Assembly (NCBI RefSeq): GCF_000758625.1
Contig: NZ_CP009283.1
Span: 5,033,501-5,097,500 of the forward strand
Source: Paenibacillus sp. FSL R7-0273
GTDB lineage: Bacteria > Bacillota > Bacilli > Paenibacillales > Paenibacillaceae
DNA: 64,000 nucleotides
Direction of reading: 5' to 3'
Shown here: positions 23,528 to 61,578 of the stretch, piece after piece
Layout: the number at the start of each line of letters is the position of its first letter
Numbering within the stretch: position 1 is the stretch's first letter
Program-made: the position numbers and the translations under genes
Notes under the pieces: generated by a model
Database searches by the model: none
Seen by the model: the letters and a program-made list of their open reading frames with translations, nothing else
What the model was told of the DNA's origin: nothing

Positions 23528-24080
23528 GGCCGCTTCTGCTCGAATCAGAGGCATTTTTGCCTCTCATTTCGGCAATCCTGCCACTTCCGCTCGAATCAAA
23601 GGCATTTTTCCCTCTCATTCCGGCAATTCGGCCGTTTCTGCTCGGATCAGAGGCATTTGTGCCTCTCATTTCGGCAATCCTGCCACTTCCGCTCAGATCA
23701 GAGGCATTTGTGCCTCTCATTTCGGCAATCCGGCCGCTTCCGCTCGATCAGAGGTATTTCTGCCTCTCATTCCGGCAATCCGGCCGCTTTCGCTCGAATC
23801 AAAGGCATTTTTCCCTCTCATTCCGGCAATCCAGCCGCTTTCGCTCGAATCAAAGGCATTTCTGCCTCTCATTCCGGCAATCTGGCCGCTTCCGCTCAGA
23901 TCAGAGGCATTTTTGCCTCTCATTTCAGCAATCCGGCCGCTTTCGCTCGAATCAGAGGCATTTTTGCCTCTCATTTCGGCTAACTGGCTGCTTCTGCTCG
24001 AATCAGAGGCATTTGTGCCTCTCATTTCGGCAATCCTGCTGCTTCCTCTCGAATCAGAGGCATTTGTGCCTCTCATTCTC
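23528..24080. repeat. Tandem array, 11 copies of a 51-bp unit with internal hairpin
   Basis: Each unit contains the dyad AGAGGCA-TTTT-TGCCTCT (or a 1-3 base variant), then CATTTCGGCAATCCGGCCGC. Dyad centres are at about 23555, 23606, 23657, 23708, 23758, 23809, 23860, 23911, 23962, 24013 and 24064: ten steps, nine of exactly 51 bp and one of 50. Because 51 is a multiple of three, long frames stay open on both strands, but the 50-bp step shifts the frame, arguing against coding. No spacers of unique sequence exist, so it is not CRISPR. Confidence 0.9.
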
Positions 24081-24136
24081 CCATACAGCGGCGTCGGCCC
24101 GCTACTTGCGGGTTCCTTCTCTTATTCCAGCTGTCC

Positions 24137-25267
24137 TCATTCCAGCTGTCCTCCCATAAGCTTAGCAGCTTCCAGAGAGAGCTCCGTGAAGGCTGCCTCC
24201 CTGCCGTTCACCAGCAGTGCAATCCGGTGTACTCCCGGATAGTGGCGGCGTGTGGTCAGGTCTGCCCAGCGGTGTGTCCGGACAGCGGACAGCCTAGCTC
24301 CTCCCGGGACCGTTTTGTCGGAGAGCAGGAACAGCTTGCGGGAGGTTTTGCCGCCGGCCTTCACGAAATCAATTCCGTACTCCACCCGAATCCGTGCCGC
24401 TTCCCCCTCCCGCACCCTTAGCTGATAGCTCAGCACACAGCTATCGCCAATCCGCAGAACGGATGGATCGACAGACAAGGCGGCTGCAGCCACAAGCGGT
24501 GCGCTCTCCTCCTCCTCCGCATAGCCAAAAATCGCCATGATTTCCGGATTAGCCTTGCGGATCAGCGAGCGGCAGCCATGCCGCACAATCCAGTCGGTGC
24601 GGGTGCTTACACCCATCCAGCGGCGGGCAATGCCGATCACGACATCAGGATGATCCTTGGCAATATCATTCAGGTTATTGGCCACGCTTTTGCGCACATA
24701 TAGTGAAGGATCATCCTTCAGCTGCTCCAGCACCGGCAGCACGGGGGAAGGATCGCGCTTGAACACAGGCAGCGCCTGGCCCCACGGCAGACGCGGCCGG
24801 CTGCCCTCACTGGCAAGCCGGCGCACATGCTCATTAGTATGCCGCGACCAGACCAGCATCTGCTCCATCATCCGCTGCGGGTCGCCCAGCAGAAACGGTC
24901 TGACAGCAAACTCGGCACTCGACCCCTGTGTAAACCGTTCCAGCGCCTTCATCGACAGCTCCCAATGCTCCTCTGCCTGCCCGTATACTTCAACAAAATC
25001 GGGAAAGATCAGGTAAGGGAAGCCCGTACATTCATGATCTACCGCATACAGGACAGCCAGAGCCTGCCCGTAGCCGCCCGGCAGATAAGTTCCCATTGTC
25101 TCCGTAATCCGCCGCATCCGTGCTTTTAATTCCAGCTCTTCCCACGGCTCCCGCATTGCCTCAGCCACAAAGGCTTCCAGCTCAAACGTCTCGCAGGCGC
25201 CATGCAGCTTCCTGCCCAGATCCCGCAAAAATCCTTCATTATACATTGCTTTTAACGGCTCCGCCAT
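24137..25267 (-). CDS. HEAT-repeat protein, DNA alkylation repair (AlkC/AlkD-like) family
   Basis: 376 residues. Helical HEAT-like repeats occupy about 1-260, with SLYVRKSVANNLNDIAKDHP and ARRWMGVSTRTDWIVRHGCR, the typical block of AlkD-like proteins. A C-terminal beta-rich domain (about 265-376) is like that of the AlkC subgroup. Such proteins flip or excise alkylated bases (family knowledge); catalytic competence is not shown here. Start 25267 lies 8 nt after GGAGGG; the longer frame to 25318 has no site. The 51-bp array lies directly downstream. Confidence 0.82.
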   Translation of the reverse strand: MAEPLKAMYNEGFLRDLGRKLHGACETFELEAFVAEAMREPWEELELKARMRRITETMGTYLPGGYGQALAVLYAVDHECTGFPYLIFPDFVEVYGQAEEHWELSMKALERFTQGSSAEFAVRPFLLGDPQRMMEQMLVWSRHTNEHVRRLASEGSRPRLPWGQALPVFKRDPSPVLPVLEQLKDDPSLYVRKSVANNLNDIAKDHPDVVIGIARRWMGVSTRTDWIVRHGCRSLIRKANPEIMAIFGYAEEEESAPLVAAAALSVDPSVLRIGDSCVLSYQLRVREGEAARIRVEYGIDFVKAGGKTSRKLFLLSDKTVPGGARLSAVRTHRWADLTTRRHYPGVHRIALLVNGREAAFTELSLEAAKLMGGQLE

Positions 25268-25557
25268 GTCTTGAACCCTCCAGTAGTTGTTGAAATTCCA
25301 GTCATGAAAGCATAGCATGGCATACTGGACAGCCTTGTGTCAGGTTTGTTTTTAAACCGGCAATTTGTACGAATATTCTCCACACATCCGTTATTCTGCC
25401 GTTGTGGTAAACCAGCTATGCCGGTCCCGGGCACATAAACATAGGACTCCTCATCATCCTCATCCGCGCCGTCTCCAGAATCATACTCATCTTCATGGCT
25501 TAACGGAGTATCCGGAGTTGCATCAAACCTTGCATCAAATGGCTCAGATATTTTCAG
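25252..25557 (-). CDS. Possible small acidic protein with non-ATG start
   Basis: An open frame of 101 codons fills the gap between the acetyltransferase and HEAT-repeat genes. Its first half is strongly acidic (HEDEYDSGDGADEDDEESY), followed by YVYVPGTGIAGLPQRQ and a Cys-containing tail. No ATG precedes the acidic part; the best start is a CTG at 25557 just after GGAGGGG, and the nearest ATG/GTG would remove half the frame. It overlaps the next start codon by 16 bp. The opposite strand is open too, so coding is uncertain. No family recognised. Confidence 0.35.
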   Translation of the reverse strand: MKISEPFDARFDATPDTPLSHEDEYDSGDGADEDDEESYVYVPGTGIAGLPQRQNNGCVENIRTNCRFKNKPDTRLSSMPCYAFMTGISTTTGGFKTWRSR

Positions 25558-25573
25558 ATCCCCTCCTGTCCAA

Positions 25574-26086
25574 TTAAAAAAACGCCGCCGGATACATCAG
25601 CTCTCCCTTAAGCTGCTCAAGCGCTCCCTCCCTCAGCACGCATACCTGAAATACTTCCGCAGGCACAGGAAACTGCAGCAGCTCCAGCCCGTGCACGCCA
25701 GCCGGCACAAAACCAAACCGGGGATAGTATGACGGATGTCCAATCAGCAATATAGCACCGAATCCCAGGCTGGCCGCACGTCTTTTGGCCTCTTCAATCA
25801 GCAGTCCGCCGATCCCCCGGCCCTGATACTCCGGATGCACGGCAATTGGAGCCAGGACGATCACCGGATGCTCCAGCTCCTTGTCCACTACCTTAGCCCC
25901 GCTCAGCAAAATATGACCGACAATCATGCCCTTCCTTTCAGCTACAATAGACAAGTCTGGAATGAACTGGTCTGAGTGCCTAATCCGTTCCAACAGCTCA
26001 GCTTCATCCTCACGGTTCCCGAACGCCAGCTCATTCAGCCGGAATACCTGCCCGTAATCCCCGGTCTTTTCGGTTCTAATCTGCAT
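25574..26086 (-). CDS. GNAT family N-acetyltransferase (YhbS-like)
   Basis: 170 residues with the acetyl-CoA-binding motif A VHPEYQGRGIGGLLIEEAKR and motif B region GHPSYYPRFGFVPAG, typical of YhbS-type GNATs. A cytoplasmic enzyme acetylating an amine of an unknown small molecule or protein. Starts 12 bp after the preceding gene's stop with GGAGG upstream, so the two are co-transcribed. Confidence 0.9.
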   Translation of the reverse strand: MQIRTEKTGDYGQVFRLNELAFGNREDEAELLERIRHSDQFIPDLSIVAERKGMIVGHILLSGAKVVDKELEHPVIVLAPIAVHPEYQGRGIGGLLIEEAKRRAASLGFGAILLIGHPSYYPRFGFVPAGVHGLELLQFPVPAEVFQVCVLREGALEQLKGELMYPAAFF

Positions 26087-26098
26087 GGATATGCCCTC

Positions 26099-26629
26099 CT
26101 AGTTAAGCAGCTCCTCAATTTCCTCTATGCCCTTCTTCGCCCGGAGGTTCAGGCTCCGCTTGTCCCGCAGCCCGAGCTGCTGCAGCTCATGACCAGGGTC
26201 AGCGACCAGCGGCTCCCGCATCACAGCCTCCAAAATCTCCACCGTGCAGCGGCAGGCACGGAACAGCAGTTCACGGGGGATCACCGGCTTGTGACAGCGG
26301 ATAATACCGGTCAGCCCCTCGGCGTACATCAGTCTTACTAAGCTGTCAGCACTCATAATGTTGCGCTCGGCAAAAGCGGCTGTCTTTTCCACCATGACCG
26401 GGCTCTGGTATTGTCTGGACAATCCATCCAATGCTTGAACTGCCTCCCAGTTCCGGATGGACAGCTGCTGCAAATAAGCATCTGCCAGTTCCGTCAGCCA
26501 CTGCTGCTCGGTCTCCCTGGATATGCCGTGTTCTTTATACATTTTCAGCACACCTTCACGGTGCATTTGGATATGACTGCCGGAATAGCGTGTGAATAAT
26601 TCACGGGCCTGCTGCAGCTCATCACTCAT
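26099..26629 (-). CDS. Hypothetical helical protein
   Basis: 176 residues, family not recognised. Predicted all-helical and soluble. Notable segments are SRETEQQWLTELADAYLQQL and ACRCTVEILEAVMREPLV with two cysteines spaced C-R-C. No known domain motif seen. It lies 12 bp upstream of the acetyltransferase gene in the same direction and 38 bp behind a small membrane protein gene, suggesting one transcript. Confidence 0.7.
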   Translation of the reverse strand: MSDELQQARELFTRYSGSHIQMHREGVLKMYKEHGISRETEQQWLTELADAYLQQLSIRNWEAVQALDGLSRQYQSPVMVEKTAAFAERNIMSADSLVRLMYAEGLTGIIRCHKPVIPRELLFRACRCTVEILEAVMREPLVADPGHELQQLGLRDKRSLNLRAKKGIEEIEELLN

Positions 26630-26667
26630 TATATAGCCACCTTGCTTGTTGTATTAAAATCCCGGTA

Positions 26668-27021
26668 TTATCGTTCCGGCTCCACATGCTTCAATCTGGA
26701 TTCCCTGAACCCGTTCTCTCTTCCCTCCGGCGTTATGCTGTAGCTAATCTGCAGCACATCGTTGTGGGCAAAATAAGTATACTCTACACCAGGCTCATCA
26801 CTAAACTCAACCACAGCAAAAAATTTCGGCAATACTATGCCCCAAACCCCTTTTACTGAAGCAATCTCCTGTTTAGTGTAGCCCATGGTTCCCGTCAGAT
26901 AGTCGGAGACCCGCTTGGCGTAAATGATTTTGTTAACCTGCACATACATCACCGGTGTCAAGATAAGCAGTACAATCAGAGTACATAACGCATAAGCAGC
27001 CCTTTTCCTCCACAGGCTCAG
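26668..27021 (-). CDS. DUF3139-like small membrane-anchored protein, probable CTG start
   Basis: Standard start codons give only a 97-residue frame (TTG at 26961) that cuts into a membrane helix. The same frame continues upstream through WRKRAAYALCTLIVLLILTP, a clean signal-anchor helix preceded by basic residues, up to a CTG at 27021. That CTG lies 9 nt after AGGAGG and there is no ATG, GTG or TTG in between. The resulting 117-residue protein has the DUF3139 pattern (N-terminal helix, GYTKQEIASVKGVWG, then a VEFSDEPGVEYTYF strand region). Probably extracytoplasmic. Use of CTG is inferred. Confidence 0.65.
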   Translation of the reverse strand: MSLWRKRAAYALCTLIVLLILTPVMYVQVNKIIYAKRVSDYLTGTMGYTKQEIASVKGVWGIVLPKFFAVVEFSDEPGVEYTYFAHNDVLQISYSITPEGRENGFRESRLKHVEPER

Positions 27022-27166
27022 CTGTAAACGCCTCCTTCTGCTAATGACCTATTTTCATCACTTTTGCAAATTAAACCTGTTTTCAAAACGCGTTTGCTGT
27101 CGTAAAATGGTTGAAAAGCTTTTGGAGCGAAAAGTTTACAAGACAGATAGATAGGGGACCGGGACG

Positions 27167-27385
27167 ATGCCAAAGCCGCTTGTCAAAAATATCGATTTTT
27201 TTGTTGCCGCCATGTCACAGACCTTTGTGTCCGCACTGCAGCTTGACCCTGACGGGATGTATTCCCAGGTCGGCTACGGCATTATTGAAAAATTCTCCGA
27301 GGAATATGTGCGGGTCAAACGCTTTGACGGCACAGTGTCGCATTATGACCGGGGAATAACCAAATTTCAGCATAACCGGGCATAA
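27167..27385 (+). CDS. Hypothetical 72-residue protein
   Basis: Small soluble protein, family not recognised; begins MPKPLVKNIDFFVAAMSQTF and ends with a charged beta-strand-like segment (EEYVRVKRFDGTVSHYDRG). The ATG is preceded by GGGGACCGGGACG. No neighbours on the same strand. The size and composition fit a conserved small Paenibacillus protein, but no function is proposed. Confidence 0.55.
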   Translation: MPKPLVKNIDFFVAAMSQTFVSALQLDPDGMYSQVGYGIIEKFSEEYVRVKRFDGTVSHYDRGITKFQHNRA

Positions 27386-27486
27386 GGTACAGGAAGTTAA
27401 ATATTACTACTATTTCTCCGGCCGGGCGCAATTCCCTGCTTTTTCCACCCTTAAGGAGACGAGGCAACAGGAAGCCTGTTGGCAAA

Positions 27487-27523
27487 AAAAAGCGGACGCA
27501 CGCTCAGCATGCATCCGCTTTTT
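27487..27523. terminator. Terminator between the 72-aa ORF and ABC exporter genes
   Basis: 10-bp stem AAAAAGCGGA / TCCGCTTTTT with a 17-nt loop; the A and T tracts make it usable from either side. It lies 28 bp after the ABC gene stop. Confidence 0.85.
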
Positions 27524-27550
27524 GGGTTGTTCTGGCACAGTAGCCCCGTC

Positions 27551-29317: not shown

Positions 29318-29379
29318 GCCTTCTGCACCGCGCTCCGGAAAACCTCCGCTGCCGGCTGCATCCGGCCTGCCTAATGCGC

Positions 29380-30333
29380 TCAACTCCAGAACTCCGTCCC
29401 GGCAAAGACCCGCGCTTTATCCGGTATACCTTCTCCTGTCCCGCTTACATTTGCCCACGCTACACGCTGCCCCCGCAGCTCACTTGCACCTGAAGCTGTA
29501 TATTCGCTGTAACGTACAGTAGCCTCATTGGCCGGGTTGCCCCAGTTATCCCAGCCGGCAGGATGAATATGCGCCCCCAGCCGGCAATTCACAAAGGCCG
29601 TTGCCGCGTAGCTGCGCCATGGCCGTCCCAGGTAAATGCCGGAAACGTCAGCACCGGCTGTCAGCAGACAATCCCTGAATACATAACCGTAGGCCTGGCC
29701 CTCAGGCGTAGATGCTGCCGTAACATAACCGACACCATCATGGGTGGAGCGCAGGCTGCGGATCTCGCAATGCTCGAAATAAGCGGTTGCCCCGCCAAAG
29801 ATAAAATCCACTGTCCCTTCAATATAGCAGCGTGTGTACAGCTGGCGGCATTGCTCCTGCCGTTCATGCAGCGGAACCCCGCCGAAGGCGAAGCCATGCT
29901 TGTTCGCTGCAGGCAGCGGACCGGTAAAAATCGTATCCTGATGCCCCTTGAAGATACAGTTGCGGAATACCGTTTCGTCACAATGGGCATAGAGAGCCAG
30001 CGCCTGGCCAATCTCCGGCCCCTGCCCGGCTGTATTGATGACGGTCAGATTTTCGATGACCAGCCTGTTGCCATTCAGGAACAGGGTAGGTGTAGCAAAG
30101 GTCCCCTGCTCTTCACCTCTTTCGTCCAGCTGCCGGGCATACAGATTGTTTGTAATAATAACCTCGCCGACTCCCGCAATTGTCAGGTCTGACCGGTATA
30201 TCCGCACGGTCTCCTCATATATCCCCGCCATAATATATATTGTCTCGTGCTCCTGCACAGTCCGGCGCTCAAGCTCATTGACTGCCTCCTGGATTGTCGG
30301 GTAATCGCAAAAGGCCTCTTTTCCTACCCACAT
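29380..30333 (-). CDS. Pectin methylesterase (carbohydrate esterase family 8)
   Basis: 317 residues forming the right-handed beta-helix of CE8. Motifs: GHQDTIFTG and IEGTVDFIFGGATAYFEH carry the two catalytic aspartates, and YLGRPWR carries the conserved arginine. It removes methyl groups from homogalacturonan. No signal peptide is visible, so the protein is probably cytoplasmic and acts on imported oligogalacturonides (inference). Start ATG 30333 lies 8 nt after AAGGAGG; the ATG two codons upstream is too close. Divergent from a LacI regulator that precedes the uxa genes. Confidence 0.92.
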   Translation of the reverse strand: MWVGKEAFCDYPTIQEAVNELERRTVQEHETIYIMAGIYEETVRIYRSDLTIAGVGEVIITNNLYARQLDERGEEQGTFATPTLFLNGNRLVIENLTVINTAGQGPEIGQALALYAHCDETVFRNCIFKGHQDTIFTGPLPAANKHGFAFGGVPLHERQEQCRQLYTRCYIEGTVDFIFGGATAYFEHCEIRSLRSTHDGVGYVTAASTPEGQAYGYVFRDCLLTAGADVSGIYLGRPWRSYAATAFVNCRLGAHIHPAGWDNWGNPANEATVRYSEYTASGASELRGQRVAWANVSGTGEGIPDKARVFAGTEFWS

Positions 30334-30395
30334 GTTCATTTCCTCCTTATGATCTATCTCAGGCACCTTCCGGCCGCGTCAAACAAACAAGATGA

Positions 30396-33135: not shown

Positions 33136-33320
33136 CTAACGGACTGAGATGCTCTTATTGTCCCTAACGTTCATCTTTTATGAGGCTAACGGACAGCAGC
33201 GCCTTTATTGGCGGTCATTTCTCCACCTTCGGGCAACAAATGAAGAAATAAGCGCATTGAGGTCCGTTAGCCATCGGAATATACACTTTCAGGCCTAATA
33301 AGGGCTCTACGGTCCGTAAG
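33136..33320. repeat. Four-unit phased repeat between uxaB and uxaA
   Basis: Four 24-bp units start at 33136, 33186, 33247 and 33297 (steps 50, 61, 50). Units 1 and 2 read CTAACGGAC...CTTATT; units 3 and 4 are inverted, AATAAG...GTCCGTTAG (CGTAAG in unit 4). Unit 2 can pair with unit 3 and unit 1 with unit 4, giving a nested hairpin or cruciform. It lies inside the uxa transcription unit, so it may act on the mRNA. The rest of the 305-bp gap holds no gene. Confidence 0.8.
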
Positions 33321-33386: not shown

Positions 33387-34874
33387 ATGAAACGATTAAT
33401 GAAAATGAACCCCCGCGATACGGTGGCTGTAGCCCTGCGTCCGGTTACCGCCGGTGAACAGCTGGAGATCGACGGTGTCAGCGTGCAGGCAGGCCAGGAT
33501 ATTCCCCAGGGGCACAAGATCGCCCTGACAGCCTTTAACGAAAATGACGTCATCACCAAATACGGCTATCCGATCGGGCACGCGATTGCCCCTATCGCAG
33601 CCGGCGATTGGATTCACACGCATAACATCAAAACAAATCTCGTAGGTGAAGAAGAATACGATTATGTGCCTGAGCTTCACCCGGTTACCTATCCGAAGCG
33701 CGACCTGACCTTCCAAGGCTACCGCCGTGCCAACGGCAAGGTCGGCATCCGTAACGATCTGTTCATTATCCCGACTGTCGGCTGCGTGAATGGCATCGCT
33801 GAGCAGATGCTGTCCGAGTTCAAGGCCGAGCACCCGGATCTGGGCGGCTTCGACAATCTTACCGTGCTGAAGCATCCTTACGGCTGCTCCCAGCTGGGCG
33901 ATGACCACCGCATGACCCGCAGCATCCTGCTGGATGCCGTGAATCACCCGAATGCCGGCGGCGTGCTCGTCTTCGGCCTCGGGTGCGAGAACAACATCGT
34001 CTCCGAATTCCGCAGCATTCTAGGCGATTATGATAAGAGCCGGGTCAAGTTCCTGGTTGCCCAGGAGGTCGGCAACGAGGTGGAAGCCGGGCTGGCGCTT
34101 CTGGAAGAGCTGTATGATGCGGCTAAGGATGATAAGCGTGAGCCGGTTCCCCTCAGCGAGCTGAACATCGGCCTGAAATGCGGCGGCTCCGACGGCTTCT
34201 CCGGCATTACAGCCAACCCGTTGCTGGGCGCTTTCTCCGATTTCATCATTTCCCAGGGCGGTACCTCGGTACTGACTGAAGTGCCGGAAATGTTCGGTGC
34301 AGAGAAAATGCTGATGGCCCGCGCAGAAAGCCGCGAGGTCTACGAGGATATCGTCTCCCTGATCAACAATTTCAAGCAGTACTTCCTCTCCTACGGAGAG
34401 CCGGTGTACGAGAACCCTTCCCCGGGTAACAAAGCCGGCGGTATCAGTACGCTCGAAGATAAATCTCTCGGCTGCACCCAGAAGGCCGGTACTTCTCCGG
34501 TCGTCGACGTGCTGGATTACGGCGTAAAGCTGCGCAAAAAAGGCCTCAGCCTGCTGCAGGCTCCGGGCAACGATCTTGTAGCAGCATCCGCCCTTGCTGC
34601 CTCCGACTGCCAGCTGGTGCTGTTCACCACCGGACGCGGGACACCATTCGGCAGCTTCGTGCCTACGGTTAAGGTAGCCACCAACAACGAGCTGTTCGCC
34701 AAAAAAGGCCACTGGATGGACTTCAACGCAGGTCCTCTGCTGGAAGTGCCGATGGCCGAAGTATTGGAAGAATTCATCTCCTACATCATCGCTGTGGCAA
34801 GCGGCCAGAAAACACGCAATGAGCAGAACGAAGTGCGCGAGCTGGCTATTTTCAAGACCGGGGTTACGTTATAA
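33387..34874 (+). CDS. uxaA: Altronate dehydratase
   Basis: 495 residues. N-terminal SAF domain (about 10-75: NPRDTVAVALRPV, GYPIGHAIAPIAAGDWIHTH), then the UxaA core with GYRRANGKVGIRND, CSQLGDD, GLKCGGSDGFSG and GCTQKAGTSPVVDVLDYG, whose cysteines and histidines bind iron. Dehydrates D-altronate to 2-keto-3-deoxygluconate. The ATG follows GAGGAGGGACAGACAGC. Third enzyme of the pathway encoded here; the later kinase and aldolase are not in the window. Confidence 0.95.
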   Translation: MKRLMKMNPRDTVAVALRPVTAGEQLEIDGVSVQAGQDIPQGHKIALTAFNENDVITKYGYPIGHAIAPIAAGDWIHTHNIKTNLVGEEEYDYVPELHPVTYPKRDLTFQGYRRANGKVGIRNDLFIIPTVGCVNGIAEQMLSEFKAEHPDLGGFDNLTVLKHPYGCSQLGDDHRMTRSILLDAVNHPNAGGVLVFGLGCENNIVSEFRSILGDYDKSRVKFLVAQEVGNEVEAGLALLEELYDAAKDDKREPVPLSELNIGLKCGGSDGFSGITANPLLGAFSDFIISQGGTSVLTEVPEMFGAEKMLMARAESREVYEDIVSLINNFKQYFLSYGEPVYENPSPGNKAGGISTLEDKSLGCTQKAGTSPVVDVLDYGVKLRKKGLSLLQAPGNDLVAASALAASDCQLVLFTTGRGTPFGSFVPTVKVATNNELFAKKGHWMDFNAGPLLEVPMAEVLEEFISYIIAVASGQKTRNEQNEVRELAIFKTGVTL

Positions 34875-37097: not shown

Positions 37098-37098
37098 C

Positions 37099-37815: not shown

Positions 37816-37887
37816 ATTAACGGGAAATGTACCGTTCTTTTCGGCACCGGCGGCCAATCCGCCTGCATTAACGGGAAATGTACCGTT
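37816..37887. repeat. Two-unit 51-bp phased palindrome, acetylesterase-isomerase gap
   Basis: ATTAACGGGAAATGTACCGTT occurs twice, nearly as a 51-bp direct repeat (37816 and 37867); the downstream C/ATTTYCGGCAC is also kept. Each copy contains the hairpin AACGG-N8-CCGTT. The remainder of the gap has no gene. Confidence 0.8.
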
Positions 37888-37959
37888 ATTTCCGGCACAC
37901 TAACTTTTGTATCGTTCAATCCAGCCATGAAAATATTACTCACAAGGAGGCCACCTGTA

Positions 37960-54502: not shown

Positions 54503-54720
54503 CTATATAGATTGAACTAATAACATTGCTGTTTTGGGACTGCATGTGACTCTAGAGAATATTTGGACTTCCAGCCGCTGTTGTCTGCAGATTTCTTGAT
54601 TTATACCGTTTTTAACGGTTGAAATCCGCAGACAAAGGCGGTCGCTACCGCTCCTCCAGTTCCAAAATTCTCCTCCGCCACTCTTCCCTTAACATAAATT
54701 CTTAAGTTCAATCTATATAG
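54503..54720. mobile_element. MITE-like non-coding element with 16-bp terminal inverted repeats
   Basis: CTATATAGATTGAACT at 54503-54518 is exactly inverted at 54705-54720. Inside, 54574-54641 forms a long imperfect hairpin (GCCGC-TGTCTGC-GATTTC pairing with GAAATC-GCAGACA-GGCGG) around an inner ACCGT/ACGGT loop. A further copy of the GCCGCTGTTGTCTGCAGATTT arm lies outside at 54772. No gene and no clear target duplication seen, so the mobile-element assignment is tentative. Confidence 0.35.
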
Positions 54721-54861
54721 TGATTTTATGGTTTAGGATTTGCCTTGTTTCAGTGAATGCGCAGACTTCCGGCCGCTGTTGTCTGCAGATTTCCGGACAC
54801 AATCATTAGTAGCTGCACGACGTAGCATGAAGGAACTTCCCCCTCCTCCGATGCTTCGCCT

Positions 54862-55046
54862 TAACTGCACTTTGTGCAACTAAAACACCTGTTTTTCTCC
54901 GAAAGTTCATTTTAACTGTATTCCGTGCAACTAAACTGCCGGGAAAAGCCTGTTTTCGCCGTTTTGGACGGAAATAGCTGCACCAAGTGCAGTTATATCG
55001 CTGAGGGTCACCTTTTCCTCGAATATAACTGCAGATTGTGCAGCTA
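54862..55046. repeat. Four-unit phased palindromic repeat (TAACTGCA type)
   Basis: Dyads TGCAC-TTT-GTGCA and variants are centred at 54872, 54923, 54985 and 55036 (steps 51, 62, 51). Flanking TAAC/ACTA sequence shows units 1, 2 and 4 in one orientation and unit 3 inverted. No reading frame of interest crosses it. The rest of 55047-55271 holds only an 8-bp inverted repeat CGGGTGAG/CTCACCCG (55181-55204), possibly part of a terminator for the GH31 gene. Confidence 0.8.
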
Positions 55047-55271
55047 TTTTAATTTCTATAGGATGGTATACTGCCCAATGAGTGAAATGCTGCCTCACAC
55101 ACAACGTATGCACAGGGGCGTTCGTCCGAGAGACTAGCTAATTTAGCTGCCGGAGTTCAGCGGGAACAACTCAGCCCAGCCGGGTGAGGTAGGCTACTCA
55201 CCCGTGCACAACAAACCTAATGCAGCGTACAAAGCTCAGCGCCGGTACCAATTCTACGCCCCGGCTCTCAC

Positions 55272-57689
55272 TTACCCCAAGCTGGCTGTCAAGATCTCAC
55301 ACAGCGCGCCGAACAGCGGCTGCTCAAGCTTAAGCGCAGTAAGGGAAGCTAACGCCGCCGCTGGCGTAGCAGAAGACCGCACCAGCCCGTAGATCTGCTC
55401 CTTCAGCTGGAATTCAATCTGCGCCCGGTTCAGCAGGGCGAATACATCCGCTTCAATCCGGTTAGCGGCAAGGCGCGCGCCGCCGAGTTCAACCGTAATC
55501 GCGGCAGACACCGCGGTCTGCGGGATCGTTACCGTAAGCGTATGTGTGGAATGGTCATACGCTGTATCCGCTGCCGTCTCCGCACCGCCGGCCAGCACCT
55601 TCACCTGCGTATCGGCCACGCCGGTAAAGCAGAGCTTCCAGCTGCGCAGCGGAGGCAGGGCAGCCAGGTTGCCGCTGGCAGGATGAATCGTAAAGCTGGC
55701 GCAATCCCCCCAGCTCAGGCTCATCTTCGTAACGCACCAGCTCTCCTCCCGGTCCCCCGCAGCTTCCCCTGTATCCTCCCACAGGTGGAAGCGGCCGTCT
55801 GCTCCGGCGAACACCTTAACCTCCAGCTCCCGCGGGTTCGCCGTGGACGAGGTGTATCCGCTGAGATCAGCCAGCGGAACAATCGCTCCGGCCTTCGCCA
55901 GCACCGGAATGGTCTCCAGATTCCTGTACAACGTAAGGCTACGGCTGCCGTCATACCCCCGGCCGCTGAAAAGGTCATACCAGCGGCCCTCCGGCAGCCA
56001 CGCCGTGAACTCCGCCATTCCGGTCCGGCGGTCCACCGGTGAGGTGATCGGGCAGGCCATCAGCTCGGTGCCGAAGTAATACTGGTTCGCCACCCCGTAA
56101 GCCTCCGGCTGCTCCGGATGATGATAATACAGCGGCCGGACCAGCGGCAGCCCGTCCACGCTCGCGTAGCGGTTCATCGTGTACAGGTAGGGAATCAGCC
56201 GGTGCCGCAGGCGCAGCGCTTCCTTCATCGCGGCTTCCGCAACCGGGTTAAACCGCCACGGCTCCTTGCTGTTGAACGGGCTGGCTGAGCTATGCAGCCG
56301 CAGCACCGGTGAGAACACGCCGAACTGCACCCAGCGCATCACCAGCTCATCGTCGAGATAGCCCTGCATGTGGCCGCCGATGTCGTGGCTCCACCAGCCG
56401 TACCCGGCATTCGCTGCACTCGCCGTGAAGTACGGCTGGAACGCAAGCGACTCCCAGGTGACAATCGTGTCGCCGGAGAAGCCCACCGGATAACGGTGAC
56501 TGCCCAGTCCGGCATAACGGGAGAACGTCAGCGGCCTGCCGCCGCGCCGGCCGCTGTCCAGATAGTGATAATGGTTCAGCATCCACAGCGGATCAAGTCC
56601 CGGCACCCGGGTTACACCGCCCTGCTGCCAATCGATCCACCAGAAGTCCACGCCTTCCTCTTCCAGCGGATGGTGCAGATATTTGAAATAGGCCTGCAGG
56701 AATTTCGGATCGGTGATATCAAATTCAACTGCATCGCCCTTTTCCGGGTCCAGCCCAAGCTCCCCGGCGATTGCCAGATAGGGGTCTTCGAAAGCGCGCA
56801 CGCCGTCTGCCGGGTGAACATTCAGCGTTACATGCAGCCCCCGCTCATGCAGCCTGGCCAGGAACTGACCAGGGTCCGGGAACAGCCTGCGGTTCCATGT
56901 ATAGCCCGTCCAGCCGCTGCCGTACTGCGGATCGACATCGACCAGATGCCAGTCCATGTCAATCACCGCAACAGAGAACGGAATCTTTTCCTGCTCGAAC
57001 CGTTCCATCAGCGCCAGATACTCATCTGCGCTGTAAGGGTAATACCGGCTCCACCAGTTGCCGAGCGCATAGCGCGGCAGAAGCGGCGCCGGGCCGCTGA
57101 GCCGGTAAAAATCCTTCAGGCATTCCAGATAGTCATGCCCGTACCCGAAGAAATACAGATCCGTCCCGCCCGCTTCACGCGGCATAACCTGCCCGTCCTC
57201 CTCCAGCAGCAGTGAACGGCTGTCGTCCATCACCGTATAGCCGCCGCGGGACATCAGCCCCGGCTCCAGCGGAATCGCCCCGTCCGCATTATCCAGTGTC
57301 CGGGCCGTACCGCCCAGATCCTGCGGCGTGTCGCCGTAATGCCAGACTCCCATCAGGTGGCCTGAGCCGTTACGCACACGCACATTAAGCCCGTAGCGGG
57401 AGAAGGGCTGCTTGTCATAGCTCAAATGCAGCCGTTCCGTTATAATCTCCAGCTTGTTACCGTGATCCACCAGCTGGAACTCCGGCACCGGAAAATCCCG
57501 GTTAAGCACAGTCTGGGTCGCCCGGTCCTCGAACCTGCCGGCAGGATGGTATTCCAGACGAAGCAGCTGCGGGGTCAGAACAGTGATCCGGAAGCCCTCT
57601 CCTTCAATGACCGCTTCAGGACGGGCGGAAGGCCGAACTTTCAGTTTCATATGCTCAGGCAGCTGCTGCTGCTCCATAATCTTTTTCAT
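55272..57689 (-). CDS. Alpha-glucosidase family GH31
   Basis: 805 residues. N-terminal beta-sandwich (about 25-200), TIM barrel with nucleophile Asp353 in FWWIDWQQGG and acid/base Asp407 in GFSGDT, then C-terminal beta domains. A helical-looking tail of about 60 residues after residue 745 is an unusual extension. No signal peptide, so intracellular. Hydrolyses alpha-linked glucose or xylose units from oligosaccharides imported by the adjacent ABC system. Last gene of the operon; the ATG follows GAGGTC at 9 nt. Confidence 0.92.
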   Translation of the reverse strand: MKKIMEQQQLPEHMKLKVRPSARPEAVIEGEGFRITVLTPQLLRLEYHPAGRFEDRATQTVLNRDFPVPEFQLVDHGNKLEIITERLHLSYDKQPFSRYGLNVRVRNGSGHLMGVWHYGDTPQDLGGTARTLDNADGAIPLEPGLMSRGGYTVMDDSRSLLLEEDGQVMPREAGGTDLYFFGYGHDYLECLKDFYRLSGPAPLLPRYALGNWWSRYYPYSADEYLALMERFEQEKIPFSVAVIDMDWHLVDVDPQYGSGWTGYTWNRRLFPDPGQFLARLHERGLHVTLNVHPADGVRAFEDPYLAIAGELGLDPEKGDAVEFDITDPKFLQAYFKYLHHPLEEEGVDFWWIDWQQGGVTRVPGLDPLWMLNHYHYLDSGRRGGRPLTFSRYAGLGSHRYPVGFSGDTIVTWESLAFQPYFTASAANAGYGWWSHDIGGHMQGYLDDELVMRWVQFGVFSPVLRLHSSASPFNSKEPWRFNPVAEAAMKEALRLRHRLIPYLYTMNRYASVDGLPLVRPLYYHHPEQPEAYGVANQYYFGTELMACPITSPVDRRTGMAEFTAWLPEGRWYDLFSGRGYDGSRSLTLYRNLETIPVLAKAGAIVPLADLSGYTSSTANPRELEVKVFAGADGRFHLWEDTGEAAGDREESWCVTKMSLSWGDCASFTIHPASGNLAALPPLRSWKLCFTGVADTQVKVLAGGAETAADTAYDHSTHTLTVTIPQTAVSAAITVELGGARLAANRIEADVFALLNRAQIEFQLKEQIYGLVRSSATPAAALASLTALKLEQPLFGALCEILTASLG

Positions 57690-57735
57690 AATAATATGAC
57701 CTCATTTCCGGCTATAACCGGCGCACCGTTAAGAA

Positions 57736-58659
57736 CTACTCCTTCACCGCGCCGATCATAACCCCCTGGTTAAAATATTTTTGGATGAACGGATACACGC
57801 ACATAATCGGAACCGTCGCCACAATAATGACGGAGTAACGCATCATATTAGCCAGCCGCAGCGCCAGCTGCGCCGCCTCGCCGGACCCGATGCCGGATTG
57901 CATCTGGTTGGTAATGAGGATGTTGCGGAGGATCAGCTGCAGCGGATGCAGATTGGGATTTTTGAGATAGATCAGGGCGTTGAAATAGGAATTCCAGTGG
58001 CCGACGGCAATCCACAAGCCCAGCACGGCAATAATTGCCTTGGACAGCGGCAGCACAATCCCCGTAAAAAACCGGAGATTCCCGCACCCGTCAATCTGCG
58101 CCGCCTCCCACAGGTCGCCTGGAATACTGGTCTGGAAGAACGTACGGGCAACAATGATGTTATACACGCCAACCGAAAACGGCAGCACCATGACCAGAAA
58201 TGTGTCATACATATGAAAATCACGGACCGTCAGAAACGTCGGAATCAGCCCGCCGTTAAAAAACATCGTAAAAATAAAGAACAGCGACAGGAATTTACGC
58301 CCCTTCAGGTCTTTACGCGAAAGCGCATAGGCAGCGCAGATATTAACAACCAGGCCGATGAGCGTGCCGACGATTGTATACAGGATGGTATTGCGGTAGC
58401 CGATCCAGATATTATTATGGCGCAGCAGCTCCTTGTAGCCGTCGAGCGTGAACCCTTTCGGGAACAGCCAGACCTGGCCGCCGGCCACCGCCGAAGGATC
58501 ACTGAAGGAAGCGATAACGATAAAATACAGCGGATAAATCAGAATAATCAGAAACAATACCGCAATCACGTACAGCACAATCTCCATCACGCTATCGGAG
58601 GAGCGGTTGTTTTTTATTTTCCCCTTAGGCTCTTTAACTGCAGGTGTAAGTACTCCCAT
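57736..58659 (-). CDS. Carbohydrate ABC transporter permease (LplC/YtcP type)
   Basis: 307 residues, six membrane helices beginning at about residue 27 after a polar, lysine-rich N-terminus. EAA loop WEAAQIDGCGNLRFFTGIVL with LPLSK. C-terminal KYFNQGVMIGAVKE. Second permease of the alpha-glucan transporter; 15 bp after the first permease gene. Confidence 0.94.
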   Translation of the reverse strand: MGVLTPAVKEPKGKIKNNRSSDSVMEIVLYVIAVLFLIILIYPLYFIVIASFSDPSAVAGGQVWLFPKGFTLDGYKELLRHNNIWIGYRNTILYTIVGTLIGLVVNICAAYALSRKDLKGRKFLSLFFIFTMFFNGGLIPTFLTVRDFHMYDTFLVMVLPFSVGVYNIIVARTFFQTSIPGDLWEAAQIDGCGNLRFFTGIVLPLSKAIIAVLGLWIAVGHWNSYFNALIYLKNPNLHPLQLILRNILITNQMQSGIGSGEAAQLALRLANMMRYSVIIVATVPIMCVYPFIQKYFNQGVMIGAVKE

Positions 58660-58674
58660 TATGAACTCCTCCTT

Positions 58675-59598
58675 CTACCACAGGCTGTTTTCGCTGATCT
58701 TTTTGGAAATCTGGTTGACGATAATCAGCAGAATAAAGTTAATGACCGTGTTGAACAGATTGACTGCCGACGAGAAGCTGTACTGGCTGCTGAGCAGACC
58801 GATTTTATATACGTAGGTGGACAGAATTTCGCTGGAGGTGGCGTTGAGGTCGTTCTGCATCAGGTACACTTTTTCAAAGCCAACCCCAAGCAGCCCCCCG
58901 ACACGCAGAATGAGCAGCGTAACCGCCGTCGGCATCAGCATCGGAATATCGATATAACGCACCTTGTGCCAGCGGCTCGCCCCGTCCACGGTTGCAGCTT
59001 CATATAGACTCGGATCAACCGCAGACAATGCCGCGATAAAAATAATGCTGTCCCAGCCGACATGCTGCCACACATCCGACCAGACGTACACGCTGCTGAA
59101 CAGCGACGAGGAGCCGAGCAGATCGGGCGCTTCCTTGCCGAACAGGCTGAACAGGTTGCCGACCAGACCGGTGCTTGGCGACAGCAGAATGACCATCAGC
59201 CCGACCATGACCACGGTGGAGATAAAATGCGGCATATACGAAACCGTCTGGAAAAAGCGCCGGAACCGGTTCGGACGCATCTGGTTCACCATCAGCGCCA
59301 GGATGATCGGAATTGGAAAGGTTACCAGACTGTACAGGCTGATAATCAGCGTATTTTTAATCGTGTTCGAGAACTGATAGGAGTTAAAGAACTTCTCAAA
59401 ATATTTAAACCCCGCCCACGGACTCTCCGTAATCCCCAAAGCCGGGCTGTAATCCTTAAAAGCAATAAGTATCCCGTACATCGGTTTGTACGCAAACAGC
59501 AGCGACAGCACCACCGCGGGCAGCAGCAGCAAATACAGCCCCCAGTTTCTTTTCACCGCCATAAGCGTCCCCCCGGAACTGGCTTGACCGGATCTCAT
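58675..59598 (-). CDS. Carbohydrate ABC transporter permease (LplB type)
   Basis: 307 residues with six helices; EAA loop YEAATVDGASRWHKVRYIDI, then PMLMP. Start 59598 lies 5-6 nt after AGGAGGGG. Partner of the next gene. The 300-bp region upstream (59599-59898) holds no gene, only the GH13 terminator and presumably a promoter. Confidence 0.94.
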   Translation of the reverse strand: MRSGQASSGGTLMAVKRNWGLYLLLLPAVVLSLLFAYKPMYGILIAFKDYSPALGITESPWAGFKYFEKFFNSYQFSNTIKNTLIISLYSLVTFPIPIILALMVNQMRPNRFRRFFQTVSYMPHFISTVVMVGLMVILLSPSTGLVGNLFSLFGKEAPDLLGSSSLFSSVYVWSDVWQHVGWDSIIFIAALSAVDPSLYEAATVDGASRWHKVRYIDIPMLMPTAVTLLILRVGGLLGVGFEKVYLMQNDLNATSSEILSTYVYKIGLLSSQYSFSSAVNLFNTVINFILLIIVNQISKKISENSLW

Positions 59599-59834
59599 GA
59601 AATCCCCTCCTGAATGTGTTTATCTGTTTAAGTACCTAAAGTATATCTTTAAGGTCCCGGAGGCTGCCGGACCTAATGGGTGCGTTAACCGGACTTTTAT
59701 GATTGGTGTAAAAGCTTCCGGGCTGCACGGTTTCCCGGGCAGCGGGCCGGTATGTGCAATGCGGACTTTCGCTGCTGTTATCCGGACTTTCGGCTTGGCG
59801 GGCAGCAGAACAATATTGGACTGCCGGCGGATGC

Positions 59835-59871
59835 AAAAAAAAAAACGCCGGGCAGCGTCTGCTATCCGGCG
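59835..59871 (-). terminator. Terminator after the GH13 gene
   Basis: On the minus strand CGCCGG-N-CAG ... CTG-N-CCGGCG followed by a run of eleven T, 28 bp past the GH13 stop. It separates the GH13 gene from the permease genes, so the cluster is at least two transcripts. Confidence 0.9.
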
Positions 59872-59898
59872 GTATCTCATACAGTATGTTACACAGGC

Positions 59899-61188
59899 TT
59901 ACACCTGCTCAATAATGACGGGCCGGCCGGCACAGAACAGCTTGCCGCCGCCATAGACCTTGATCTCGCCGCCGTCGATCAGGCTCTGGTAGCTTCCATC
60001 CGGCAAGCCGGTATCTACCTCGGCTTCCCTGCCCTTCAGGCTGAATACGCCGGCCAGCTTCCGGCTGCCCCAAGTGTGTGTTCCTGTTACGATGTCCTCT
60101 TCCTCTACTGCATGCAAATGGAAGATGCCCTCCGCCATGATCTCCTTCTGCTTAATCGGGTATAGCGCAGTGAACAGCCAGGACAGGTCAGTCCCGGTAT
60201 CCCAGCTGACCGTATCCTTGTCGAACAGGTCAGGGCAAACCGTGTTCGCCGTTTCCTGTCCGCCGTAGATCAGCGTCATGCCCTTCTGGAAATACAGGAA
60301 GGCCGTCCAGTTGATCAGGCTCTGCTCATCCGGAATGAGCGCTTTAGCCCGAGGCCGGTCATGATTCTCCAGAAACCGCAGTTTGACGTAGTTATCCGGG
60401 TAAAGGTACTCCTGGGCGTTAATTTTCTCTATGTAGCTCGCAAGCGGAATCTCACCGGCCAGATAACCGCTGTAATACGGATAGACATCGTAGTCATAGC
60501 AGGCATCGAACGCCTGCAGCGTTTCCGCATCGCTGAGCCCGGCCAAGCCGAGCGAACGGAGGTGCATAATGAAATCCGGCTCGATAGATTCGGCCAGCCA
60601 CAGGCAGCCGGAATTGACCTCGCGCACTTCCTTGGCGGCCCGCTCCCAGAACGCCAGCGGCAGCAGCGGTGCAACGTCGCAGCGGAAGCCGTCGACGATG
60701 CCCGCCCACCTCTTCAGCGTCTCAATCTGGTAGTCCCACAGCTCTCGACAGTTATAGTCAAGGTCCACAATATCAGCCCAATCTCCGGCTTTATTGCCGA
60801 GCTTCCCTTCCGGCGTTCTATAGAAAAATTCGGGATGCTCACTGACCAGTACCGAATCCGGCGAGGTATGGTTATACACCACGTCGATGATGCATTTCAT
60901 CCCGTGCTCATGGATCGCGCCGACCAGCGACTTGAAATCCTCCAGCGTGCCCAGCTCCGGGTTAATTTCCCTGTAGTCCTGGTTGGCGTACGGGCTGCCT
61001 AAGCCGCCTTTGCGCTCGGCGGTACCGATCGGATGAACCGGCAGCAGCCAGATAATGTCCACCCCAAGGCTGCGGATGCGCCCGAGATCGCGCTCCACCG
61101 CGCGGAAGCTCCCCTCTTCACTGTGGTTGCGGACGTACACTGAGTACACAACACTGCTGCGCAGGGATTTTGAAGTATGCTTTGCCAT
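59899..61188 (-). CDS. Alpha-amylase family glycosidase (GH13)
   Basis: 429 residues, shorter than most GH13 enzymes. The four conserved regions are present: DVVYNHT (about 102), GFRCDVA with nucleophile Asp171, acid/base Glu200 in WLAESIE, and FLENHDRPR with Asp277. Short C-terminal beta domain. No signal peptide, so it acts on imported maltodextrin- or isomalto-type substrate. The ATG follows GGAGTG. Preceded by a 415-bp repeat-rich gap and followed by its own terminator. Confidence 0.93.
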   Translation of the reverse strand: MAKHTSKSLRSSVVYSVYVRNHSEEGSFRAVERDLGRIRSLGVDIIWLLPVHPIGTAERKGGLGSPYANQDYREINPELGTLEDFKSLVGAIHEHGMKCIIDVVYNHTSPDSVLVSEHPEFFYRTPEGKLGNKAGDWADIVDLDYNCRELWDYQIETLKRWAGIVDGFRCDVAPLLPLAFWERAAKEVREVNSGCLWLAESIEPDFIMHLRSLGLAGLSDAETLQAFDACYDYDVYPYYSGYLAGEIPLASYIEKINAQEYLYPDNYVKLRFLENHDRPRAKALIPDEQSLINWTAFLYFQKGMTLIYGGQETANTVCPDLFDKDTVSWDTGTDLSWLFTALYPIKQKEIMAEGIFHLHAVEEEDIVTGTHTWGSRKLAGVFSLKGREAEVDTGLPDGSYQSLIDGGEIKVYGGGKLFCAGRPVIIEQV

Positions 61189-61252
61189 TTCTGTTACACT
61201 CCTACTCCTATAGTTAATTAGAATTAAGGCTGGATGTTTGACGGCTAAGTTA

Positions 61253-61360
61253 GTTTGTTGACAGTTAGGTGCTATGTCGAAGTTGGGGGCTATGTGAGAG
61301 TTTGGTGCTATGTGAGAGCTTGATGCTATATCGGAGTTTGTTGCGTTACCGTGTGTTGAG
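61253..61360. repeat. 18-bp minisatellite, about five to six units
   Basis: GCTATGTGAGAGTTTGGT-type units start at 61271, 61289, 61307, 61325 and 61343, with a degenerate one at 61253. Exactly 18-bp steps, decaying at both ends. Lies just upstream of the GH13 gene. Confidence 0.75.
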
Positions 61361-61387
61361 TAACCAATCTTGAAGCCAAGTAAATTG

Positions 61388-61578
61388 AATTAAGTGGATT
61401 TTCGCCACCTAATTCTTCATCAAACAACGATATTAGTGAATTAGTTGGAAAAAGGTCACTTAAATGTGCCTATTTCACCTGTCTGCTGGTAAATCACCGA
61501 ATTAGGTGACGTTTTTCCATCTAATTGTCCGAATCAGCAGATAACGATCAATTTAAGTAGCAAAAATCCAACTAAATC
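61388..61578. repeat. Four-unit phased palindromic repeat (AATTAAGTGG type)
   Basis: Imperfect dyads AATTARGTGG...CCACYTAATT with a T- or A-run loop, centred at 61401, 61452, 61513 and 61564 (steps 51, 61, 51). By the T-run, units 1 and 3 read one way and units 2 and 4 the other. With the 18-bp minisatellite this fills the 415-bp gap between the GH13 and LacI genes. Confidence 0.8.

What the first reader, a model, noticed from the sequence alone, without database searches (positions are those of the whole stretch)
23528..61578. Different intergenic repeats share one geometry: dyads or mutually inverted motifs at 50-51 bp steps, in three cases 51-61-51
Five gaps (23528-24080, 33136-33320, 37816-37887, 54862-55046, 61388-61578) carry unrelated motifs (AGAGGCA/TGCCTCT, TAACGGAC, AACGG/CCGTT, TGCAC/GTGCA, AATTAAGTGG/CCAC). 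Spacing is nearly fixed: 51 repeated; 50-61-50; 51; 51-62-51; 51-61-51. Sequence diverges but spacing does not, which points to selection on spacing (five and six helical turns) or to a copying mechanism with a fixed unit. I know of no named element class with this rule. It could be a nucleoid- or regulator-binding platform, a structured RNA, or a family of non-autonomous elements.
Basis: partly seen in the sequence, partly recalled or inferred. Interest (0 to 1): 0.82.

Follow-up and report, generated by a model that had tools for sequence, protein, structure and literature searches.

The report
Four-site DNA elements built for wrapping
Gaps between genes in Paenibacillus and related bacteria carry many unrelated-looking repeats that share one strict layout, four binding-site-like units with A/T-rich patches at every turn of the DNA helix, which suggests DNA made to wrap around a protein, somewhat as DNA wraps around histones.

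Summary
All five gaps show the stated spacing. In a 1.264 Mb sample of the same genome, 51 bp is the top intergenic direct-repeat distance: 36 events, median 1. Three motif families (F1 TGCA, F2 AATTAAGTGG, F3 TAACGGAC) share one architecture: two forward and two reversed units at about 50-51 / 61-62 / 50-51 bp. New here: spacers, weakly alike between copies (38-41% identity), carry an A/T patch every 10.0-10.1 bp, in phase with the dyad centre in all three families, over 19 helical positions, then nothing. A motif-free search finds quartets in other Paenibacillus (38; 28 with this geometry) and Saccharibacillus (4; 3), none in shuffles or an Enterococcus-rich outgroup at that score, and one in another family of the order. 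In a relative, 18 of 22 have a same-family counterpart in place, with few indels inside. This favours a DNA-wrapping nucleoprotein platform over RNA, mobile element or gyrase site. Best protein candidate, unproven: RemA, an octameric ring thought to wrap AT-rich DNA phased at about 10 bp; unit 1 to dyad centre matches one calculated RemA turn. RemA alone does not explain the many motifs.

The parts
23528..24080 (.). tandem array of 51-bp units, dyad AGAGGCA-TTTTT-TGCCTCT; A/T period 10.17 bp
33136..33159 (+). F3 element, unit 1 (CTAACGGAC...CTTATT)
33186..33209 (+). F3 unit 2 (step 50)
33247..33270 (-). F3 unit 3, inverted (step 61)
33297..33320 (-). F3 unit 4, inverted (step 50)
37816..37898 (.). 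two-unit element AACGGGAAATGTACCGTT, step 51
54862..54882 (+). F1 element, unit 1 (TAACTGCACTTTGTGCAACTA)
54913..54933 (+). F1 unit 2 (step 51)
54975..54995 (-). F1 unit 3, inverted (step 62)
55026..55046 (-). F1 unit 4 (step 51); nearly palindromic, so scores it on the + strand for this copy
61388..61414 (+). F2 element, unit 1 (AATTAAGTGGATTTTCGCCACCTAATT)
61439..61465 (+). F2 unit 2 (step 51)
61500..61526 (-). F2 unit 3, inverted (step 61)
61551..61577 (-). F2 unit 4, inverted (step 51)

Best explanation
Each element is a double-stranded DNA platform of about 185-190 bp that is wrapped around an oligomeric protein. SHOWN from sequence: four ~21-27 bp units in ++-- order at about 50-51/61-62/50-51 bp; A/T patches at 19 successive helical positions centred on the dyad axis and ending at the outer units; the same layout with different unit motifs in other Paenibacillus, in Saccharibacillus and once in another family of the order; intergenic placement, enriched between converging genes and rare between diverging ones. 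INFERRED: the A/T patches are minor-groove-inward contacts on a curved protein surface; the units are read by sequence-specific subunits or partners; the 51-bp tandem arrays are the open-ended form of the same wrap. MOST LIKELY CORE, unproven (about 35% on its own): RemA (PF04025), an octameric ring thought to wrap DNA and reported to protect AT-rich sites every ~10 bp. One turn round the ring is about 81-84 bp by my arithmetic; unit 1 to dyad is 80.5-82 bp and unit 1 to unit 4 is 161-164 bp, that is two turns, as a 16-mer would need. Proposed role, inferred: local packaging, or a barrier to supercoiling at gene ends.
For: Period and phase: spacer-only A/T period 10.02-10.13, phase within 6 degrees of the dyad centre in four sets; symmetrised profiles correlate at 0.78-0.90 at shift 0 and -0.68 to -0.81 at shift 5; 0 of 2000 permutations reach the observed power in any set, flanks flat. 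Single elements: 27 of 27 own, 20 of 21 G022, 26 of 28 other Paenibacillus, 3 of 3 Saccharibacillus quartets are periodic on their own at p<0.05, against 25 of 241 random intergenic windows. Extent: helical positions -9 to +9, 69 elements averaged. Independence: spacer identity between distant copies 0.38-0.41 on average, at most 0.53 (84 of 168 pairs had comparable lengths). Selection on spacing: gap columns inside elements against 2x60 bp flanks, F1 8 against 191 (7 pairs), F3 6 against 146 (4), F2 32 against 175 (7); without the two pairs of unequal unit number, F1 0 against 112 (6), F3 5 against 67 (3). Context: convergent 12 of 36 against 41 of 326 gaps, p=0.0004; divergent 2 of 36 against 75 of 326, p=0.006; some gaps hold more than one element. 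RemA: in the own genome, matching the 7BM2 ring protein (E 3.9e-33) with GRRTRA kept; ring size, 16-mer and ~10-bp AT-rich footprints in PMC8481266; absent in the 3 Enterococcus/Lactococcus genomes tested, whose loci were in the outgroup without elements at score 82.
Against: No protein-DNA data exist here. Between orthologs, substitutions in spacers preserve A/T-vs-G/C class no more than in other intergenic DNA (0.254 against 0.243), and spacers diverge more (22.5%) than units (9.8%) or than BLAST-alignable intergenic DNA (9.9%) (11 equal-length pairs). RemA has one close copy plus one distant paralogue, which does not explain several unit motifs in one genome. RemA also occurs in Niallia, Heyndrickxia and Shouchella, where no element was seen, but only about 20-21 kb per locus was read. 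There are 18 intervals between 19 patches, not 16. Some high-scoring quartets have other geometries: 58/45/59, 71/41/61 and 49/41/49 own, 73/43/73 L055, 38/73/38 L087. At the lower score of 78 the outgroup has 3 quartets, none of this geometry. In one F2 ortholog pair (61387) there are more gap columns inside (5) than in flanks (2). Three other-Paenibacillus quartets of 28 are out of phase.
Confidence: 0.65

Rival explanations
1. Operators of an ordinary multimeric regulator (for example Lrp/AsnC-type octamers), with curved DNA between four dimer sites; the families are regulons of paralogous regulators.
For: Four dyad-like units match four dimers; units in F1 and F2 are palindromic; many motifs would fit many paralogues. 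[quoted passage not shown]
Against: Elements are rare at diverging promoters (2 of 36) and enriched at converging gene ends, though 22 of 36 are in tandem gaps and could act on a promoter; about 36 elements per 1.26 Mb is dense for operators; flanking genes share little; F3 units are not palindromic. LrpC wrapping is right-handed by its paper's title (reference seen), which would be expected to lengthen the period beyond 10.5 (recalled reasoning). No Lrp search was made.
Confidence: 0.14
2. DNA gyrase (or topoisomerase IV) strong sites, as some REP/BIME-2 elements are in E. coli.
For: The E. coli gyrase motif is symmetrical, long and has phased G/C content; BIME-2 are intergenic and at least some are bound by gyrase (PMC6379681 passages). 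Our elements are enriched at converging gene ends.
Against: Gyrase period is 10.75 bp over 130 bp with a central part (-16 to 19) between two periodic arms; ours is 10.0-10.1 bp over about 187 bp and runs through the centre. The gyrase motif is described as degenerate, without 21-bp units.
Confidence: 0.07
3. A REPIN- or MITE-like family of non-autonomous mobile elements whose geometry is a transposase requirement.
For: Dispersed, many copies, inverted symmetry, several families per genome, locally duplicated copies (0.94 and 0.89 identity within 20 kb; whole-element arrays); presence differs between species in the gap before the 33387-34874 gene.
Against: No PF01797 (RAYT/Y1) in the genome; distant copies at most 0.67 identical; 18 of 22 have a same-family counterpart in place in G022; the one transposase seen between half-elements looks by eye like an IS3-type gene that split an F2 element; tandem 51-bp arrays are not explained; helical phasing of spacers is not expected.
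Confidence: 0.08
4. Intrinsically curved DNA alone, with no wrapped particle, acting as a bend or supercoil pin; units are incidental.
For: Phased A/T runs curve DNA on their own; A-tract periodicity is known in prokaryotic chromosomes (PMC3940949, abstract and passages).
Against: Units are conserved in sequence (9.8% divergence against 22.5% in spacers) and sit at exact steps; the signal ends sharply at the outer units.
Confidence: 0.06
5. A structured RNA with four hairpins.
For: The two elements folded are more stable than shuffles (z -5.4 and -7.0), but that follows from their inverted repeats.
Against: No Rfam match in the window; F3 units are not hairpins; the 10-bp A/T phasing concerns duplex DNA. 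Covariation was not tested.
Confidence: 0.02

Closest known systems
RemA-bound regions of Bacillus subtilis (PepsA, PtapA)
   Same: Poorly conserved, repetitive, AT-rich 7-bp patches spaced by 3 bp (about 10-bp period); ring protein thought to wrap DNA (PMC8481266; abstract, sections 7, 8, 11 and passages read)
   Different: Those lie upstream of promoters and have 6 protected patches; here 19 patches, four sequence-specific units, two-fold symmetry, many copies, few at diverging promoters
E. coli gyrase motif and BIME-2/REP elements
   Same: Symmetrical motif with phased G/C content read as wrapping; BIME-2 intergenic
   Different: Period 10.75 against 10.0-10.1; 130 against about 187 bp; no fixed four-unit layout (PMC6379681, passages only)
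REPINs (RAYT-mobilised)
   Same: Inverted short palindromes, several families per genome, intergenic (PMC3116915 seen as search listing only; details recalled)
   Different: No RAYT in this genome, four units with helical spacing, spacers only weakly alike between copies
Nucleosome-positioning DNA
   Same: A/T patches alternating with G/C at about 10 bp, a particle-sized stretch (recalled)
   Different: No PF00808 histone-fold match over cut-off in this genome; sequence-specific units at fixed steps

Membership tests
RemA binding region | AT-rich patches at about 10-bp steps | tested here: met
   Period 10.02-10.13 in spacers; 19 patches
RemA binding region | RemA encoded in the same genome with DNA-contact arginines | tested here: met
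   PF04025 E 3.6e-37; match to 7bm2 E 3.9e-33, GRRTRA kept
RemA binding region | Binding by RemA | not testable with these tools
   No binding data
RemA binding region | Position upstream of regulated promoters | tested here: inconclusive
   2 of 36 divergent, 12 of 36 convergent, 22 of 36 tandem; tandem gaps may hold promoters
REPIN/REP | Cognate RAYT (Y1) transposase | tested here: not met
   PF01797: 0 matches in own genome; 5 of 14 control genomes ring
REPIN/REP | Near-identical dispersed copies | tested here: not met
   Among 29 sampled four-unit elements the best copies over 20 kb apart are 0.67 identical
Gyrase site (BIME-2 type) | 10.75-bp phasing in two arms outside a central region of about 36 bp | tested here: not met
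   10.0-10.1 bp, continuous through centre; definition from passages of PMC6379681
MITE | Target-site duplications and empty sites | tested here: inconclusive
   Gaps turn over fast; some corresponding gaps lack the element but no clean duplication was read
CRISPR array | Identical repeats with unique spacers | tested here: not met
   In the window's tandem array the whole 51-bp unit repeats, spacer included; quartets have inverted halves
Structured RNA of a known family | Rfam match | tested here: not met
   0 matches in the window at gathering scores
Histone-wrapped DNA | Histone-fold protein present | tested here: not met
   PF00808 best 14.1 bits, cut-off 21.4; other histone families not searched
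Lrp/AsnC octamer operator | Binding by an Lrp-type octamer | not tested
   Considered; no Lrp family search was made

The most novel reading that the evidence does not exclude
Paenibacillus and related bacteria carry a nucleosome-like particle: a RemA 16-mer wraps two turns of DNA (about 16 helical turns from unit 1 to unit 4) at some 200 or more fixed intergenic sites per genome. Each site is addressed by a four-unit code whose letters change between families and species while its geometry is held, and the tandem 51-bp arrays form continuous wrapped fibres.
Probability: 0.28. Interest if true: 0.95.

Novelty: categorically new. Interest (0 to 1): 0.86.

Why it matters
Bacteria are usually said to lack positioned, nucleosome-like wrapping of specific DNA. 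Here a sequence code for such wrapping is visible directly: helical-phase A/T patches over a particle-sized stretch, with four address units at exact steps, in many copies and with different motifs. If true it would give a catalogue of positioned wrapping sites in a bacterial chromosome, a likely function for RemA outside Bacillus (where its wrapping has been hard to test), and a ready experimental system: each element predicts where the protein sits, to the base pair. Even without RemA, geometry that is conserved while the motifs change is a strong handle for finding the protein.

Tried and rejected
RNA: Rfam scan of the window empty; folds are explained by inverted repeats. RAYT/REPIN: no PF01797. 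Autonomous mobile parent: the split halves at own 2346938 / 2348445 hold a transposase gene that I judged IS3-type by eye and that looks like a separate insertion; a similar split F3 pair in G022 (4930660 / 4932051) was not followed. Cognate gene next to the elements: Pfam scan of 63 flanking proteins shows at most 4 with AraC-type HTH, 2 histidine kinases and 2 MarR (the first 25 of 140 families shown; flanking genes outside 200-3600 bp or crossing a stretch border were dropped). Histone fold: no PF00808 over cut-off. Gyrase: period and layout differ. The inverted-repeat histogram was uninformative because palindromic units smear the distance; replaced by unit and quartet scans. The W/S-preserving substitution test gave no difference. 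Spacer identity was first computed in one orientation (0.32-0.35) and corrected with both orientations (0.38-0.41). For the order-level sample (19 stretches) my gene caller was trained on single stretches and over-called noncoding DNA (193 kb of about 358 kb), and no shuffles were run; one search repeated it over all DNA with shuffles: 7 quartets at 82 or more against 0. Only L301 among them is a full quartet of this geometry; L299 and L304 are 51-bp arrays, L306 is 54/54/54, and L297, L305 and L309 have other steps. Literature on such elements: listings showed none; only open PMC papers are held.
Full report
WHAT WAS CLAIMED AND WHAT IS THERE. The five gaps were read and scanned for repeats. 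The tandem array at 23528-24080 has 51-bp steps with one of 50; 33136-33320 has 50/61/50; 37816-37898 has two units 51 apart; 54862-55046 has 51/62/51; 61388-61577 has 51/61/51. The last two units of each quartet are inverted relative to the first two. One correction: the F3 units (CTAACGGAC...CTTATT) are not dyads themselves.

SOURCE. The window lies at 5033501-5097500 of a single-contig 7.29 Mb genome. The protein of 33387-34874 is 98-99% identical (best segment) to ones in Paenibacillus camerounensis, Paenibacillus sp. DMB5, P. typhae and Paenibacillus sp. PastM-3.

GENOME-WIDE TEST. I took 1.2 Mb more of this genome and called genes with a home-made hexamer model. Intergenic direct repeats peak at 51 bp (36 events; 50: 8; 52: 10; median 1). 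Unit profiles seeded from the window and refined on the sample found 51 F1, 77 F2 and 22 F3 units (reversed-sequence controls 3, 3, 9), intergenic in 94, 100 and 86% against 19% noncoding overall. Ten F1, 16 F2 and 3 F3 groups have four units. Their steps are 51/59/51 (one ends in 52, one in 54) in the 24-nt F1 register (59 equals 62 between cores), 51/61 or 62/51, and 50/61/50 or 51. All are ++-- except the window's F1 element, whose last, nearly palindromic unit was scored '+'. Incomplete groups are listed. Scaling 11, 20 and 5 groups of two or more units to the whole genome gives roughly 200 elements, apart from arrays (inference).

THE NEW SIGNAL. Stacking non-redundant four-unit elements of own (sample plus BLAST-fetched loci) and G022 (29 F1, 21+17 F2, 18 F3) and masking the units, the A/T fraction of the spacers oscillates with a period of 10.0-10.1 bp (0 of 2000 permutations in each set), while flanks are flat. 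Bootstrapped best periods are 10.02-10.13 for spacers and 10.09-10.27 for whole elements; the A/T peak lies on the dyad axis in all four sets; symmetrised profiles correlate between sets at 0.78-0.90 and anticorrelate when shifted by half a turn. Averaging 69 quartets of four groups, peaks occur at helical positions 0 to 9 on each side and stop at 10. The signal is present in single elements: 27 of 27 own, 20 of 21 G022, 26 of 28 other Paenibacillus, 3 of 3 Saccharibacillus, against 25 of 241 random intergenic windows. Phase exceptions: 2 of 21 in G022 and L038, by their sequence tandem arrays, and L058 and L109 (below). Eight of the ten arrays measured have periods of 10.17-10.21; two where 51- and 52-bp steps mix have 10.33 and 10.38. 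Scanning own intergenic gaps of 150 bp or more for A/T periodicity without any motif gives 49 of 930 windows over threshold 12, against 1.67 expected; 41 of the 49 are these elements or 51-bp repeats.

MOTIF-FREE GEOMETRY SEARCH. A search for any four 22-mers in ++-- order with steps between 38 and 75-80 bp found, at score 82 or more: own 46 (667 windows), G022 28 (447), other Paenibacillus 38 (432), Saccharibacillus 4 (55), an outgroup of Enterococcus, Vagococcus, Lactococcus, Niallia, Heyndrickxia and Shouchella 0 (126); shuffles (one per window) 0 in every group. At 78 the outgroup has 3, of other geometry, and shuffles 2 (own) and 1 (G022). Of those at 82, 27 of 46, 21 of 28, 28 of 38 and 3 of 4 have steps of 49-53/56-66/49-53. 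Of the other 19 own ones, 15 have outer steps of 51-52 (mostly tandem arrays), one has 51/55/50, and three (58/45/59, 71/41/61, 49/41/49) do not fit. L055 (73/43/73) and L087 (38/73/38) are others. Unit motifs differ widely between species; many by eye fit a 21-bp frame TAR-N15-YTA, which I did not test. L058 and L109 hold quartets with a central step of 71 (one more turn) and related ones reported as 65 in another register whose phase at the dyad is flipped, as expected if phase is locked to the units (inference). In other families of the order (19 stretches), L301 (f7) holds a full 52/62/52 quartet with phase -4 degrees, and L304 and L299 hold 51-bp arrays; over all that DNA 7 quartets reach 82 against 0 in shuffles, the other four with other steps.

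EVOLUTION. In the relative G022, 18 of 22 own elements with three or more units have a same-family element at the corresponding place; own 327656 and 328108 share one, and for some the flank matches were untidy. Of the other four, two had no flank match and two had none of these elements. Gap columns inside elements against 2x60 bp of flank: F1 (7 pairs) 8 against 191, F3 (4) 6 against 146, F2 (7) 32 against 175. Two pairs have unequal unit numbers, which inflates gaps; without them F1 has 0 against 112 and F3 5 against 67. F2 often changes 61 to 62 in the centre, and one F2 pair runs the other way (mispaired rows of element 54861 were dropped). Units diverge by 9.8% and spacers by 22.5% in 11 equal-length pairs; alignable other intergenic DNA diverges by 9.9%. 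Substitutions in spacers do not favour A/T-to-A/T or G/C-to-G/C changes (0.254 against 0.243), a result against simple purifying selection on the A/T class. Copies more than 20 kb apart share 0.38-0.41 of spacer letters on average, at most 0.53 (84 of 168 pairs comparable, better of two orientations), and at most 0.67 overall; close duplicates (0.94, 0.89) lie within 20 kb. In the gap before the 33387-34874 gene the F3 element is present in 3 of 19 relatives read (DMB5, PastM-3, ihuae), internally deleted in typhae, reduced to a remnant in camerounensis and not seen in 14 (by eye).

CONTEXT. Of 36 own elements (two or more units), 12 lie between converging, 22 between tandem and 2 between diverging genes; all gaps of 150 bp or more give 41, 210 and 75. 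Fisher tests: p=0.0004 for convergent and 0.006 for divergent, treating elements as independent although some share a gap. Flanking genes share little: 4 of 63 AraC-type, 2 histidine kinases, 2 MarR.

MECHANISM. Helically phased A/T over a limited, two-fold symmetric stretch is what wrapped DNA would look like. The period is close to that of nucleosomal DNA (recalled) and shorter than the 10.75 bp of the E. coli gyrase motif (PMC6379681, passages). The best protein candidate met is RemA. PMC8481266 (abstract, sections 7, 8 and 11, passages) describes an octameric ring about 71 A across that can form a 16-mer, is thought to wrap DNA with arginines at the minor groove, and reports earlier footprints of at least six AT-rich 7-bp patches at 3-bp intervals; the authors would have expected 16 for a 16-mer. 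DNA on a 71 A ring needs about 81-84 bp per turn (8.0-8.3 helical turns; my arithmetic). Unit 1 to dyad is 80.5-82 bp, and unit 1 to unit 4 is 161-164 bp. The own genome encodes a RemA strongly matching the crystallised one, plus a distant paralogue. RemA was found in 29 of 32 genomes tested; the three without are Enterococcus (two) and Lactococcus. This is suggestive only: RemA is also in Niallia, Heyndrickxia and Shouchella, of which too little was read, and one RemA does not explain many unit motifs. I therefore propose two layers: a general wrapping core and motif-specific readers at the units. The first layer is the better supported.

WHAT IT IS NOT. Not a REPIN by the transposase test, not CRISPR, not a known RNA, no PF00808 histone fold, and unlikely to be a gyrase site. 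No held paper describing the element class came up (listings only).

VERDICT. A real, widespread, strictly built DNA element class; function inferred; protein unidentified, with a testable candidate.

Noticed in passing
own genome 2346938-2348525 (L148): An F2 element appears split between units 2 and 3 by a transposase gene, IS3-type by eye (2347088-2348020, minus). Parts of its flanking motif (GGTGAGACCCCCTTATC...) also sit next to AAAGGG arrays near 243283 and 5281875, so this IS may favour such places.
   Followed up: partly
own genome 7001573-7003083 (L281) and G001:C1:1190123-1190860 (L285): Whole four-unit elements amplified in tandem: five F2 copies 316-370 bp apart, three F1 copies 276 bp apart.
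   Followed up: partly
window 54760-54800; own 5102894 region; L033 upstream of the match: A second repeat class: hairpin-like GGACTTCCGGCCGCTGTTGTCTGCAGATTTC...GAAATCCGCAGACAAAGGCGGAC, whole or in part in several gaps and another species.
   Followed up: no
window 61259-61348 and about 23187-23400: Degenerate short-period tandem repeats (18 bp at 61259; TTGGGTGYGxTGGAT-like near 23187) right beside the wrapped-type elements; some other elements too have short-period arrays beside them (L013, L023, L281).
   Followed up: no
window 23502-24242: The 51-bp array creates reading frames on both strands (up to 246 aa) that an annotator could mistake for genes.
   Followed up: no
L087 (Saccharibacillus sp. 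O23) and L055 (P. cookii): Quartet-like repeats with other steps (38/73/38 and 73/43/73), possibly different element classes.
   Followed up: no
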